DNA from: Roseovarius mucosus
GTDB lineage: Bacteria; Pseudomonadota; Alphaproteobacteria; Rhodobacterales; Rhodobacteraceae
Assembly (NCBI RefSeq): GCF_002080415.1
Contig: NZ_CP020474.1
Coordinates: forward strand, 1,873,501-1,937,500
Length of the DNA stretch: 64,000 nucleotides
Direction: 5' to 3'
Positions 19,560 to 36,805 of this stretch are shown here, in pieces. Under the pieces are notes generated by a model. The model searched no databases. It was given only the letters and a program-made list of their open reading frames with translations, and was not told the origin of the DNA. The position numbers and the translations under genes are program-made. Each line of letters opens with the position of its first letter. Position 1 is the stretch's first letter.

Positions 19560-20822
19560 ATGACCGACCCGGCTAAATACCGTCGCCAGATCGAGATCCT
19601 CCGTCACGCGGATGCCACCTCCGTGACGGAAATTCTCACGCGCTACGCCATCGTCATCGGCGCGGCGCTCCTTTTGTGGATCAGCACGGGGCAAACCCTC
19701 ATGCTGATCTGGGGGTTTGTCTATACCGTACTCAACGGGGTCTATATCTTCGTGCTGCGCGCACCCAATTTGCCCAAGACGCGCGGGGCCTATTGCGCGC
19801 TTTTTCTGGCGAGTATGATCATTTCCACGTGGTATGCGGCAATGACCATCTATCTCACCACCCTCGACAGCCGGGCTTATGAATTCATCGGCATTTGCGG
19901 GCTGATCGGCCTTGGCCTCTACAATCTCAGCCGCCATACCGATCTGACTTTTCTGGCGCTGTGGGATACGCTCTTGCTCACGCTCTGTGTCATAGGCATC
20001 GTTCTGGCCTTTGTCGCCAAGACCGAGACCCAAAGCCATCAGGTCGCCATCGTCTTTGCCGGGTTCGGCATCAATGCCTATTACATGATGACCTATCTCT
20101 CGATGATGCGCACCCGCGCGACCCTGCGCAGCGCCCAAGAGGCCGAGGTGCAATCGCAAAAGATGCGCGCGGTCGGTCAACTGACCAGCGGCATCGCCCA
20201 TGACTTCAACAACATCCTGACCGTGATCCGGGGCAATCTCGATCTCGCGTCGGAACTGCCCAATCTGGCAGAGCGTGAACTCATGCTGGACGAGGCCCGC
20301 GCCGGCACCGACCGCGCCGCCCATCTTGTTCGACAGTTGCTGGCCTTCTCGCGCAAATCCCAAATGATGCGAAGCGATATCGCCCTTGGCCCCTTTCTCG
20401 AAGACTTCGCGGTTTCGCTGCGCCGCCTTTTGCCCGAAACGGTGCGCATCGCCCTCTCTGGCACGCTGCCAGACCTCAGCCTGCGCGCGGATCGTCAGCT
20501 GTTGGAAACCGCGCTCTTGAACTGCGCCATCAACGCGCGCGATGCGATGCACCCCGAAGGCGGCATTTTGCGGCTCTCGGCCGTGGTCGACACAGCCGCG
20601 CACGAGGTGGCAATCCTGATCGAGGATACCGGCCCCGGCGTGCCCCCCGCCATGATCGACCGCATCACAGAGCCTTTCTTTACCACCAAGCAGGTGGGCG
20701 AGGGCTCAGGTCTCGGGCTGTCGATGGTCAAGGGCTTTGCTGAACAATCCGGCGGGCGGCTTGAGTTGCGCAACCAGCCCTCTCGCGGCCTGCAAGTGGC
20801 GCTGATTTTACCACTGGTCTGA
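19560..20822 (+). CDS. Membrane sensor histidine kinase (orphan)
   Basis: A 420-residue histidine kinase. The N-terminal 180 residues hold about six hydrophobic membrane segments without a periplasmic sensor domain. A dimerisation/phosphoacceptor domain follows with GQLTSGIAHDFNNILTVIRG (His in IAHDFNN), then an HATPase domain with NCAINARDAM (N box), EDTGPGVPP (G1) and GSGLGLSMVKGF (G2). The HDFNN type resembles NtrB/FixL-like kinases. There is no receiver domain and no response-regulator gene next to it, so its partner is elsewhere. A GNAT gene precedes it by 114 bases; the region downstream is non-coding. Confidence 0.9.
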   Translation: MTDPAKYRRQIEILRHADATSVTEILTRYAIVIGAALLLWISTGQTLMLIWGFVYTVLNGVYIFVLRAPNLPKTRGAYCALFLASMIISTWYAAMTIYLTTLDSRAYEFIGICGLIGLGLYNLSRHTDLTFLALWDTLLLTLCVIGIVLAFVAKTETQSHQVAIVFAGFGINAYYMMTYLSMMRTRATLRSAQEAEVQSQKMRAVGQLTSGIAHDFNNILTVIRGNLDLASELPNLAERELMLDEARAGTDRAAHLVRQLLAFSRKSQMMRSDIALGPFLEDFAVSLRRLLPETVRIALSGTLPDLSLRADRQLLETALLNCAINARDAMHPEGGILRLSAVVDTAAHEVAILIEDTGPGVPPAMIDRITEPFFTTKQVGEGSGLGLSMVKGFAEQSGGRLELRNQPSRGLQVALILPLV

Positions 20823-21030
20823 AACGGGACATTCCCCCGGCAATGCGCTCCCCATCGAAACCACACCCGTCCCGGGCTTGACCCGGGACCTCGCCAAGGC
20901 GGGATGGAGGCCCCGGCTCAGGGGCCGGGGCGATGTGGACCCGGTCGAACGCAACACGCCCCAAAATGCCGCACGACCTTACATAATCCCCTTACACACC
21001 TTACGAAGCTTACACGCTGCGCCATCCAAA
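20823..21030. other. Non-coding spacer with palindromes and CTTACR repeats
   Basis: No supportable ORF. It contains GTCCCGGG/CCCGGGAC (20869-20876, 20882-20889), CCCCGGC/GCCGGGG (20911-20917, 20924-20930) and four hexamers CTTACA, CTTACA, CTTACG, CTTACA starting at 20978, 20991, 21000 and 21009. The palindromes may act as ends of histidine-kinase transcripts or as dispersed repeats; the hexamer cluster could be a protein-binding array. Confidence 0.5.
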
Positions 21031-21062
21031 TCAAAAGGGCCGTCCCAACCGGGAACGGCCCT
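21031..21062 (-). terminator. Strong intrinsic terminator of the minus-strand small RNA unit
   Basis: On the minus strand, AGGGCCG-T-TCCC pairs with GGGA-CGGCCCT around a GGTT loop (an 11-bp stem with one bulged base), followed by TTTTGATTT. It is oriented to end transcripts coming from 21215 or from mepA upstream. Confidence 0.8.
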
Positions 21063-21127
21063 CTAGAAGTCGCGGAGGTGGGCCGGTTAGGCGCACCAAT
21101 TCAGGTCGTTTTCACCTCGGGGCTGCC

Positions 21128-21184
21128 CTAGGCGATCACCTCCCAAACTGTTCCGACACCTCGCTCCAATCCCTCTATAGACAC
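21128..21184 (-). CDS. 18-residue peptide with exceptionally strong Shine-Dalgarno
   Basis: A GTG-initiated 18-codon reading frame encoding MSIEGLERGVGTVWEVIA, ending in TAG. AGGAGG lies 7 bases before the GTG, inside a 16-base match to the anti-Shine-Dalgarno tail of 16S rRNA. No family is recognised and the peptide has no signal or membrane segment. It may be a real microprotein, a leader peptide whose translation changes RNA folding, or a by-product of a ribosome-binding RNA. No minus-strand gene follows the terminator closely, so classical attenuation of a downstream gene is unlikely. Confidence 0.4.
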   Translation of the reverse strand: MSIEGLERGVGTVWEVIA

Positions 21185-21292
21185 TGGACCACCTCCTTTC
21201 GCTTGTTGAACTTACCCACAGGTTGCCACAGATTTTGCGCTTGTCAAAACAAAATCATGTGGTGCCCGCAAAATTTCTCGCATCATGCTGAT

Positions 21293-22216
21293 TTATTCGG
21301 CTTGTAAAACGGCGACGCACTGCCCCGGCAGATCCGCCATTGTCAATTCGCGCTTGGGCTTGGGCGCAGGCGCATTGGGATCAGGTGGCGGCGGATTGAG
21401 GATATTGCGCACCCACTGTTCCGCCTCTGCACAGCCATCCCCCGGCGGCATCGCCTCCTGCGTCACGCAACCCGTTGCTCCGCTTGGACAATTCAGCCTG
21501 ACATGAAAATGATAATGATGCCCATACCACGGCCGCACCTTACGCAGCCACTCCCGATCACTGCCCTGTTCATCCTTGCACATCTGCGCCTTGGCCCCGG
21601 CGAAAATGAAAATCCGGGCTGTGCGCGGGTCCTTGGCAGCGGCTTTGACGATCTCGTGATGGGCGCGGGTCCACTGGCTGTTGGTATAGGCCCCGTTCGC
21701 CTTCTGCATTGAAATAGAAGAGATATTTTCTCTCTGCGCCACGCTGAGGTTTAGATTATCCGCCGGTCTTAGCCAGATATCGGCATCCAAACCCATCTGA
21801 TGGCTGGCATGTCCCGTCAGCATCGGCCCACCCCGTGGTTGACTGATATCCCCCACATAGAGGCCGCTCCACCCCGGCTGCTGCGCCGCAACGAGCGACA
21901 ATTTCTGAACCAGATCAATGGTTTCCGGGTGCCCCCAGTTGCGGTTGCGGCTCAGGCGCATGGCCTGCCACGTAGGCCCGCTCTCAGGCAGGGCCACGCC
22001 CCCTGCCAAACAGCCCTTGGCATAGCTGCCATAGGCCGCCGGGCTATGCTCGGACGCACCCCGCTGTGCACCAAAAAGTTGTTTGGCTTGAATACCTTGC
22101 ATCGACGCAGGGATGCTTTGGCTGGACAAAACGCCGGTTGCTTCGGGTTCCGGTTTAGACTGCATACAGCCCGCAAGCCCAAGCAAAAGCGCCGTGACGG
22201 CTACGATCCGACCCAT
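21293..22216 (-). CDS. mepA: Penicillin-insensitive murein endopeptidase MepA (lipoprotein)
   Basis: A 307-residue M74-family metallopeptidase that cleaves D-Ala-meso-diaminopimelate cross-links in peptidoglycan. The N-terminus is a lipoprotein signal (hydrophobic core then LAGC, Cys17), so it is probably anchored in the outer membrane. Zinc-site motifs are present: GHASHQMGLDAD (about 135-146) and YGHHYHFHVRL (231-241). Paired cysteines in the C-terminal part are usual for MepA. Its start overlaps the stop of the upstream transporter by 16 bases, suggesting co-transcription with a UMF1 transporter. Confidence 0.93.
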   Translation of the reverse strand: MGRIVAVTALLLGLAGCMQSKPEPEATGVLSSQSIPASMQGIQAKQLFGAQRGASEHSPAAYGSYAKGCLAGGVALPESGPTWQAMRLSRNRNWGHPETIDLVQKLSLVAAQQPGWSGLYVGDISQPRGGPMLTGHASHQMGLDADIWLRPADNLNLSVAQRENISSISMQKANGAYTNSQWTRAHHEIVKAAAKDPRTARIFIFAGAKAQMCKDEQGSDREWLRKVRPWYGHHYHFHVRLNCPSGATGCVTQEAMPPGDGCAEAEQWVRNILNPPPPDPNAPAPKPKRELTMADLPGQCVAVLQAE

Positions 22217-35579: not shown

Positions 35580-36734
35580 TCACGCAGATACGGACAGCGC
35601 GGCGATCTCGGTCTCGAACGCCCATTTGATCCACGGCATCAACGCCGCGACATCAGCGGTTTCGACCGTGCCACCACACCAGATCCGCAGGCCGGCAGGC
35701 GCATCGCGATACGCCCCGATATCATAGGCGACATCCGCCGTTTCCAGCCGCTTGGCCACCGCCTTGGCAAAGGCTGCACCATCCTTGATCCGCGCATCCT
35801 CGAAGGTAAGGCAGACGGACGTATTCGAGCGGATCTCAGGATCAGCCGCCAGAAACGCCAGCCAATCGTTTTGCGTCACAAATTCTTCAACCGCCGCAAG
35901 ATTGGCATTGGCGCGTGCCTGCAGGCCGGTCAGCCCGCCAATCGACGACGCCCAATCGAGCGCCACAAGGTAATCCTCTACCGCGAGCATCGAGGGCGTG
36001 TTGATGGTCTCGCCTACAAAGATGCCGTCAATCAGCTTGCCGCCTTTGGTCAGGCGGAAAATCTTGGGCAGTGGCCATGCGGGCGTATAGCTTTCCAGCC
36101 GTTCCACAGCGCGGGGGCTAAGGATCAGCATGCCATGCGCCGCTTCGCCCCCCAGCACCTTTTGCCAAGAAAAGGTCGTCACGTCGAGCTTGTCCCATGG
36201 CAGGTCCTGCGCAAAGGCCGCACTTGTCGCGTCACAGATTGTCAGACCCTGACGATCCGCCTTGATCCAATCGCCATTCGGTACGCGCACACCAGAGGTG
36301 GTGCCGTTCCAGGTGAACACGACATCCTTGTCGGTATCAACCGATGCCAGATCAACGATCTGGCCATAATCAGCAGTTTTGACCACCGCATCGAGTTTGA
36401 GTTGCTTCACCGCATCGGTGACCCAGCCTGCGCCAAAGCTCTCCCAAGCCAGCATTTCGACGGGGCGCGCGCCGAGCAGGTTCCACATCGCCATCTCGAC
36501 GGCCCCGGTGTCAGAGGCGGGAACGATGCCGATCTTGTAATCAGCAGGCACGCCCAGAATGGCGCGGGTGTTCTCGATGGCGGCCTTTAGCTTGGCCTTG
36601 CCCCCGGCAGCACGATGGCTGCGGCCCAAGGGGGCATCAGACAGCATGTCGAGCGTGAATGTGGGGATTTTGGCACAAGGGCCAGAAGAAAAACGCGGAT
36701 TTTCCGGCCGCGTTGCCGGTGCTTCAATAGCCAT
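35580..36734 (-). CDS. serC: Phosphoserine aminotransferase
   Basis: A 384-residue PLP-dependent aminotransferase making phosphoserine from phosphohydroxypyruvate and glutamate. Features include [13 protein letters not shown] at the N-terminus, [40 protein letters not shown] and the PLP-Lys region [16 protein letters not shown]. It is of the type II alphaproteobacterial form. It precedes serA on the same strand, with serB divergent, and a serC-type leader RNA candidate lies directly upstream. Confidence 0.96.
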
Positions 36735-36737
36735 ATA

Positions 36738-36805
36738 GCTACCCTCTCAGATAAGCGCCCCTCGTTGGGGAGGGGTGTCCCACGGATCGGATTACGGCCA
36801 AGCAG
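36738..36805 (-). ncRNA. Candidate serC leader RNA motif
   Basis: The region right before serC folds on the minus strand into a hairpin CCCCTC-CCCAAC-GAGGGG (36775-36770 and 36763-36758), preceded by CCGATCCGTGGGACA and followed by AGAGGGT near the start codon. A conserved serC RNA motif is known upstream of serC-serA operons in Alphaproteobacteria, and position and hairpin agree with it. I could not score it against the Rfam model. Its known function is unproven; regulation of serine synthesis is suspected. Confidence 0.6.

What the first reader, a model, noticed from the sequence alone, without database searches (positions are those of the whole stretch)
21031..21247. Undescribed-looking minus-strand unit: 16-nt Shine-Dalgarno, 18-codon ORF, four GAGGTG motifs, strong terminator
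The minus strand at 21199-21184 reads AAAGGAGGTGGTCCAG, which can pair with the last 16 bases of the alphaproteobacterial 16S rRNA (one G-U). This is far beyond an ordinary ribosome-binding site. It is followed 7 bases after AGGAGG by a GTG-started 18-codon frame, three further GAGGTG motifs, a perfect internal complement CCACCTCC of the Shine-Dalgarno, and an 11-bp intrinsic terminator. The pieces suggest a microprotein, a ribosome-binding decoy RNA, or a self-folding leader. The unit is not attached to a downstream gene on its strand, which argues against classical attenuation.
Basis: partly seen in the sequence, partly recalled or inferred. Interest (0 to 1): 0.72.

Follow-up and report, generated by a model that had tools for sequence, protein, structure and literature searches.

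The report
Ribosome-grabbing small RNA, orphaned from arfB
This is a divergent form of a widespread alphaproteobacterial small RNA whose 5' end matches the tail of ribosomal RNA almost perfectly and starts a tiny reading frame; in most related bacteria examined it sits just in front of a ribosome-rescue gene, which suggests, but does not prove, that it senses or manages ribosomes.

Summary
In detail: super-Shine-Dalgarno (21199-21184, minus), GTG-started 18-codon ORF (21184-21128), CCACCTCC and terminator are as described. The unit is not undescribed: it is a divergent relative of Rfam RF01867 "CC2171", a Caulobacter sRNA (43.1 bits, full length, E 9e-8, below Rfam's cut-off of 75). Relatives occur across Alphaproteobacteria as separate terminated units. 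In 55 non-redundant Rhodobacterales-type copies the stop is kept by swapping TAG/TGA/TAA (53/55), start codons swap GTG/ATG/TTG, yet codon positions show no third-position excess: translation looks selected, the peptide does not. Two helices over the ORF covary. Folding predicts an SD mostly open in nascent RNA and locked in the finished RNA, though the start codon stays mostly paired. In 45 of 62 Rhodobacterales-type loci arfB (ribosome rescue) starts within 128 nt after the terminator; here arfB lies about 560 kb away, so this copy is an orphan. Elsewhere the downstream strand is random (40 same, 43 opposite). Best reading: a stand-alone, ribosome-engaged regulatory RNA whose fold is set by translation of a throw-away mini-ORF. 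Output unknown, no expression data; arfB attenuation is a live rival.

The parts
21242..21247 (-). -35 element TTGACA of the unit's probable own promoter
   Evidence: Read. At 47-51 nt before AAAGG a >=5/6 match is present in 46 of 52 non-redundant Rhodobacterales-type loci (control windows 0-2 of 52); in other clades only 22 of 91 (controls 2-3 of 91).
21220..21225 (-). probable -10 element CAACCT (spacer 16); transcription start inferred near 21213-21210
   Evidence: By spacing from the -35 and from the start of the Rfam model at CAACAA; weak match to a -10 consensus; start not mapped experimentally.
21200..21210 (-). 5' leader TTCAACAAGCG with the CAACAA box
21184..21199 (-). super-Shine-Dalgarno AAAGGAGGTGGTCCAG, complementary to the 16S rRNA 3' tail
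   Evidence: among 32 single-mismatch hits in class genomes none falls in the SD core.
21128..21184 (-). 18-codon ORF, GTG start, TAG stop
   Evidence: start and stop conservation.
21165..21188 (-). start-codon hairpin UCCAGU/AUUGGA (21188-21183 with 21170-21165)
   Evidence: RNAalifold; compensatory form CCCAU/AUGGG in congener L010.
21097..21150 (-). helix P3: CAGTTTGGG (21150-21142) with CCTGAATTG (21105-21097)
   Evidence: Native pairs far better than swapped pairs, z -12.5, 0 of 300 permutations.
21112..21137 (-). helix P4, hairpin around the stop codon
   Evidence: z -8.3, 0 of 300 permutations.
21074..21081 (-). CCACCTCC, anti-SD element predicted to lock the SD in the finished RNA
   Evidence: covariation test z -3.1, hardly beyond the largest control of -2.9; the SD is nearly invariant, so the test has little power.
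21036..21062 (-). intrinsic terminator, 11 bp then TTTT
   Evidence: a strong terminator-like hairpin follows in 149 of 156 loci against 4 of 156 control windows.

Best explanation
A stand-alone regulatory RNA gene, about 175 nt, homologous to the alphaproteobacterial sRNA CC2171. Its 5' end is an almost perfect complement of the 16S rRNA tail, so a 30S subunit can bind as soon as the nascent RNA emerges (inferred). The ribosome initiates at GTG and reads 18 codons to a conserved stop; the peptide is a by-product (inferred from conservation of start and stop but not of amino acids). When the 3' part has been made, CCACCTCC closes the SD, the start codon sits in its own hairpin, and P3/P4 fold around the end of the ORF (predicted; P3 and P4 supported by covariation). 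Ribosome traffic thus decides which fold the RNA takes, and hence whether its anti-SD element is free to act or whether the RNA is protected (inferred). In Rhodobacterales the gene mostly lies between queT or mepA and arfB, so its usual setting there is beside ribosome rescue; here it is an orphan, arfB being elsewhere in the genome.
For: Promoter box (46 of 52 Rhodobacterales-type loci) and terminator (149 of 156). Pattern with <=1 mismatch in 54 of 289 class genomes, 0 reversed-pattern hits, one copy in all but one of them; RF01867 at E<=0.001 in 61 of 289. Of the 32 single-mismatch hits all lie in the two bases before the start codon, in its first base (3, all giving TTG) or at the pattern ends (1 each); none in the SD core or in the T and G of the start codon. 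Fairer, because found without the pattern: of 14 RF01867 matches in the 13 RF01867-positive genomes that lack the pattern, 10 have AAGGAGGTG plus a start codon (TTG 4, ATG 3, GTG 3). L010 is two bases shorter there, has ATG instead of GTG and keeps 18 codons. Stop at codon 19 in 53 of 55 non-redundant copies, TAG 25, TGA 19, TAA 9, TGG 0 against 9 expected. Codon-position entropies 0.74, 0.76, 0.67. P3 and P4 covary. SD core unpaired 0.57-0.70 between 55 and 120 nt, 0.18 at 140 nt, 0.02 complete (mean of 62); 0.32 with the 3' part shuffled.
Against: No RNA-seq or ribosome profiling was available: transcription and translation in this organism are not shown. The start codon stays mostly paired in its hairpin from 55 nt on (unpaired 0.11-0.14, mean of 62; 0.34-0.37 in the window copy), which speaks against easy loading on the nascent RNA. 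The open-then-locked SD is seen only in Rhodobacterales-type RNAs, not in the three other clades tested (40, 12 and 21 RNAs). SD/anti-SD (z -3.1) and P1 (z -2.4) hardly differ from the controls (-2.9 to +2.2). The super-SD is not universal: 13 of 61 RF01867-positive genomes lack the pattern at <=1 mismatch, and 4 of 14 matches there show no SD at all (weak matches, perhaps false). Outside Rhodobacterales-type loci the promoter box is weak (22 of 91). The stop-codon probability ignores phylogeny. The output (target or partner) is unknown.
Confidence: 0.45

Rival explanations
1. It is, by origin, the 5' leader of arfB: translation of the mini-ORF decides between terminator and read-through, so that ArfB is made when ribosomes stall; the window holds an orphaned leader.
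For: arfB begins 5-128 nt after the terminator on the same strand in 45 of 62 Rhodobacterales-type loci, 13-35 nt in several, little room for a separate promoter; downstream gene on the same strand in 51, opposite in 6, none called in 5 of 62. RNA and ArfB co-occur: 41 of 67 RNA-bearing class genomes have ArfB, 54 of 222 others.
Against: The unit is kept where no arfB was found within 1200 nt downstream (14 of 62 loci, among them L001, L002 and Paracoccus L038, L044, L084, L091; some stretches are short); in other clades the downstream strand is random, 40 same and 43 opposite; 26 of 67 RNA-bearing genomes have no ArfB over the cut-off. By eye a number of arfB genes have a TANNNT box 12-15 nt before ATG, a possible leaderless promoter (sequences, not tested). 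No antiterminator was looked for systematically.
Confidence: 0.22
2. A 30S decoy or parking RNA: the super-SD captures free 30S subunits, and the mini-ORF only lets them leave again.
For: Strongest 16S-tail complementarity in the window, SD core free of mismatches among near hits, different ORFs in different clades.
Against: A pure decoy needs neither a kept stop codon nor covarying helices over the ORF; the Rhodobacterales-type RNA is predicted to lock its SD when complete.
Confidence: 0.15
3. A microprotein gene: the 18-aa peptide is the product.
For: Kept start and stop and a recurring LERGVGT core in Rhodobacterales-type copies. Caution: Ser2 was built into the search pattern and [LVM]E at codons 6-7 into the definition of the set, so these two are no evidence; two copies found without the pattern have His or Lys at codon 2 (L189, L192).
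Against: No third-position excess; TTGGAG at codons 6-7 is explained by pairing with UCCAGU; unrelated peptides of 14-35 residues in other clades.
Confidence: 0.08
4. A base-pairing sRNA whose CCACCTCC motif represses SD-bearing mRNAs, the SD at its own 5' end being only a lid.
For: A CCRCCTCC/CCATCTCC-type motif recurs in the Rhodobacterales-type alignment; C-rich anti-SD motifs are described for other alphaproteobacterial sRNAs (SmelA075/099, passage of PMC3927594; SisA-D, passage of PMC12559287).
Against: No such motif is apparent in the Rhizobiales-type RNAs (by eye), and a lid does not need a start and a stop codon.
Confidence: 0.1

Closest known systems
Rfam RF01867 CC2171 (Caulobacter sRNA)
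   Same: Full-length covariance-model match 1-159, the same 5' block CAACAA-GAAAGGAGGUG-UCCAGUGUCU, terminator at the 3' end; copies with intermediate scores bridge the gap.
   Different: 43.1 bits against a cut-off of 75; different interior, an SD-locking anti-SD element, an 18-codon ORF and arfB as usual neighbour.
S. meliloti trp attenuator RNA rnTrpL/peTrpL
   Same: Short ORF at the 5' end of a terminated small RNA that is ribosome-engaged (passages of PMC10117765).
   Different: rnTrpL is leaderless and sits before trpE; here there is a super-SD, no downstream gene, and a peptide that is not conserved as a peptide.
Dual-function sRNAs (e.g. VcdRP; Pos19 of Rhodobacter sphaeroides)
   Same: sRNA-sized transcript with an ORF (search listing and starts of abstracts only).
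   Different: For VcdRP a functional small protein is described; here conservation speaks against one.
Extended-SD mRNAs of Staphylococcus aureus
   Same: SD pairing longer than the core (passages of PMC13009471).
   Different: There a feature of many mRNAs; here a stand-alone RNA, usually one per genome, with about 16-18 pairs.

Membership tests
Rfam RF01867 (CC2171) | score at or above the gathering score (75 bits) | tested here: not met
   43.1 bits, E 9e-8; five other Rhodobacterales-type copies 32.5-47 bits.
Rfam RF01867 (CC2171) | alignment over the whole model with the 5' block | tested here: met
   Model 1-159, not cut off.
Rfam RF01867 (CC2171) | closing helix (codons 3-5 with the stretch before the terminator) | tested here: inconclusive
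   Readable by eye, but z -2.4 in Rhodobacterales-type copies lies within the control range.
transcription attenuator (leader peptide type) | regulated gene directly downstream on the same strand | tested here: not met
   None in the window; met in 45 of 62 Rhodobacterales-type loci.
transcription attenuator (leader peptide type) | mutually exclusive antiterminator and terminator | not tested
   Terminator present; no antiterminator search was made.
dual-function sRNA | ORF is translated | not testable with these tools
   Only conservation evidence.
dual-function sRNA | the encoded peptide is conserved as a peptide | tested here: not met
   Codon-position entropies 0.74/0.76/0.67.

The most novel reading that the evidence does not exclude
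A class-wide riboregulator that measures 30S availability: a super-SD RNA that is translated once while nascent and then locks itself, coupling ribosome supply to ribosome rescue (arfB in Rhodobacterales) and perhaps to other translation genes elsewhere.
Probability: 0.17. Interest if true: 0.87.

Novelty: new variant of a known kind. Interest (0 to 1): 0.6.

Why it matters
RF01867 is catalogued in Rfam as an sRNA gene. The evidence here gives it a start codon that swaps only to other start codons, a selected stop codon, an exceptional ribosome-binding site, a wider range than Rfam's cut-off admits and, in one order, a neighbour in ribosome rescue. That turns a family with no function named in the sources I could read into a directly testable case of an RNA whose translation, not whose peptide, is the function.

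Tried and rejected
Leader of a conserved downstream gene class-wide: rejected, downstream strand random outside Rhodobacterales-type loci. RNase R (3 loci) and YaiI/DUF188 (8 loci) are local neighbours; these names, and MATE for the gene before the moved arfB, are recalled from the sequences, not from a profile search (one search failed). CrfA/SisA sponge paper seen as outline and passages: different RNA. The mir-8830 match is far below its cut-off. Gene callers were replaced by that. P1 and SD/anti-SD covariation: not clearly above controls.

Selection effects. The sets come from a pattern that contains SD, NTG and TC, and the Rhodobacterales-type set is defined by the peptide filter VS...[LVM]E, not by taxonomy; so Ser2, codons 6-7 and most start-codon counts there are not independent evidence. 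The stop codon, codons 8-18 and the pattern-free set are.

Literature: ten searches. Two papers name RF01867 (PMC5596092, a Mesorhizobium table row; PMC11701678, an Rfam table row; passages seen); the other 15 of the 17 hits were judged by title only. Passages were also seen of PMC4842269, PMC2873474, PMC3927594, PMC5082802, PMC4117421, PMC8012679, PMC10117765, PMC13009471, PMC4809877, PMC5107571 and PMC5521070. None of what I saw describes this ORF, the super-SD or a link to arfB. The Caulobacter discovery paper (Landt et al. 2008) was not held and is known from recall and a reference list. Supplements were not open to me and the library holds open-licence papers only.

Dropped rows: L037, L134, L171 too short; L024, L035, L042 left out of alignment A1 (59 of 62); identical copies merged; L008, L010, L018 missed by the SD regex and examined; L147 without terminator; L053, L099, L106, L143 and Azospirillum L090, L129, L147 left out by judgement (L053 and L106 share flanking genes, and may be genuine).

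Full report
What is there. The minus strand between mepA (21293-22216, penicillin-insensitive murein endopeptidase, 336 bits against a cut-off of 272) and a convergent histidine kinase gene (19560-20822, plus) carries a compact unit: -35 TTGACA (21247-21242), probable -10 CAACCT (21225-21220), CAACAA box, super-SD (21199-21184), GTG ORF of 18 codons (21184-21128), anti-SD CCACCTCC (21081-21074) and an 11-bp terminator (21062-21036). The RNA folds at -81.6 kcal/mol, z -3.5 against shuffles.

What it is. A sensitive Rfam scan matched 21208-21037 minus to RF01867, the Caulobacter sRNA CC2171, along its whole length (43.1 bits, E 9.1e-8, cut-off 75). All twenty other loci tried gave end-to-end matches, from 91.5 bits (L088) through 81.7 (L028) and 69.8 (L025) down to 32.5 (L040); the five Rhodobacterales-type ones gave 32.5-47. 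By Rfam's threshold the window copy is not a member; by sequence, anatomy and intermediates it is a homologue. Among 289 class genomes 54 have the pattern with at most one mismatch, with no reversed-pattern hits, and 61 have RF01867 at E<=0.001, 9 above the cut-off; 48 genomes have both. In a phylum-wide draw of 299 genomes all 51 matches at E<=1e-4 were in the same class (228 non-matching genomes were not listed, so their kinship is unknown to me).

Translation. Of the 32 one-mismatch hits all but two differ in the two bases before the start codon or in its first base (three cases, all TTG); the other two lie at the pattern's ends; none is in the SD core or in the T or G of the start codon. 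As a fairer test I fetched the 14 RF01867 matches of the 13 genomes that lack the pattern: 10 show AAGGAGGTG followed by a start codon (TTG 4, ATG 3, GTG 3), two of them with codon 2 other than serine, and ORFs of 14-26 codons; 4 show no SD. Two of the ten are from the window's own family and have exactly 18 codons (L188 TTG...TGA, L189 GTG...TAA). In 55 non-redundant Rhodobacterales-type copies 53 stop at codon 19, with TAG 25, TGA 19, TAA 9 and no TGG where about 9 would be expected (P 6e-8 ignoring ancestry), while first stops in the other two frames scatter. Congener L010 has two bases fewer before the start, ATG instead of GTG, and 18 codons. Yet mean entropy by codon position is 0.74, 0.76, 0.67, and other clades encode unrelated peptides of 14-35 residues. 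So start, stop and length look selected while the peptide does not. This is conservation evidence; translation itself is not shown.

Structure. RNAalifold on 59 copies pairs GGAGGU with the distal ACCUCC, puts the start codon in a hairpin UCCAGU/AUUGGA and finds the terminator. L010 shows a compensatory form CCCAU/AUGGG of the start hairpin. A partner-swapping test supports P3 (codons 12-15 with the 3' side; z -12.5) and P4 (around the stop codon; z -8.3); four control pairings ranged from -2.9 to +2.2, so P1 (-2.4) and SD/anti-SD (-3.1) are not clearly supported. Partition functions on growing transcripts (62 Rhodobacterales-type RNAs) give an SD core unpaired 0.57-0.70 between 55 and 120 nt, 0.18 at 140 nt and 0.02 when complete; with the 3' part shuffled the complete RNA gives 0.32. 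Against easy loading, the start codon is unpaired only 0.11-0.14 from 55 nt on (0.34-0.37 in the window copy). The three other clades tested show no such switch.

Independence and neighbours. A strong terminator-like hairpin follows in 149 of 156 loci against 4 of 156 control windows. A TTGACA-like box (>=5/6) lies 47-51 nt before the SD in 46 of 52 Rhodobacterales-type loci (controls 0-2) but only in 22 of 91 others (controls 2-3). Outside Rhodobacterales-type loci the next gene is on the same strand in 40, opposite in 43, not called in 11 of 94. Within them it is on the same strand in 51 of 62; arfB (NF006718, 182 bits for the L104 protein) starts within 1200 nt in 48 and 5-128 nt after the terminator in 45; 14 show none (the three smallest gaps rest on an early start codon). 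Upstream lies queT in 42 and mepA in 9 called loci. The three other genomes of the window's family in the class sample all show RNA and arfB adjacent. The window's genome is an exception: its arfB is at G000:C1:2453927-2454337, about 560 kb away, behind a gene that looks like a MATE transporter (recalled), and the only other DNA match to the unit in this genome is a chance-level one (E 0.48) elsewhere. The string TGTAAGGTCGTG occurs both behind the orphan terminator and before the moved arfB. Across the class sample 41 of 67 RNA-bearing genomes have ArfB against 54 of 222 others, but 26 RNA-bearing genomes lack it, and genome size and ancestry confound the test.

How it most likely works. Shown: the sequence features, their conservation, the random downstream strand outside Rhodobacterales-type loci, and P3/P4 covariation. 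Predicted: SD largely open in nascent RNA, closed in finished RNA. Inferred: ribosomes load during transcription, the mini-ORF is read, the peptide is discarded, and ribosome traffic sets the fold and so the activity or stability of the RNA. The output is not known. The arfB neighbourhood suggests ribosome rescue, either in cis by attenuation (rival, 0.22) or as a regulatory neighbour. A decoy (0.15), an anti-SD sRNA with a lid (0.10) and a microprotein (0.08) are less well supported.

Novelty. In the held papers I found RF01867 only as table rows; no description of the ORF, the super-SD or the arfB link turned up in the ten searches named in Tried and rejected. Most subscription papers, including the discovery paper, were not readable here. 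I rate it a new variant of a known kind.

Noticed in passing
window 36734-36785 (-): serC leader RNA (RF00517, 69.7 bits), the only Rfam match in the window above a gathering score.
   Followed up: no
window 20981-21031 (-): Repeated TGTAAG/CGTAAG motifs behind the terminator; TGTAAGGTCGTG recurs upstream of the relocated arfB (L186), perhaps a relic of the arfB promoter or a regulator site.
   Followed up: partly
L003, L011, L020, L021 between terminator and arfB: GTAC-centred repeats, some palindromic, before arfB in several congeners, possibly an operator.
   Followed up: no
L045, L069, L126: The gene downstream of the RNA looks like RNase R, another factor tied to nonstop-mRNA decay (identification recalled from the sequence).
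   Followed up: no
L070, L171, L134: arfB lies upstream on the opposite strand of the RNA in these non-Rhodobacterales-type loci, L070 and L134 being Hyphomonadaceae records.
   Followed up: no
L090, L129, L147 (Azospirillum): The same super-SD precedes a 57-59 aa ORF that looks like a secreted peptide.
   Followed up: no
G035, G062, G183, G267, G294, G301: Second or third weaker RF01867 matches, possible paralogues or chance.
   Followed up: partly
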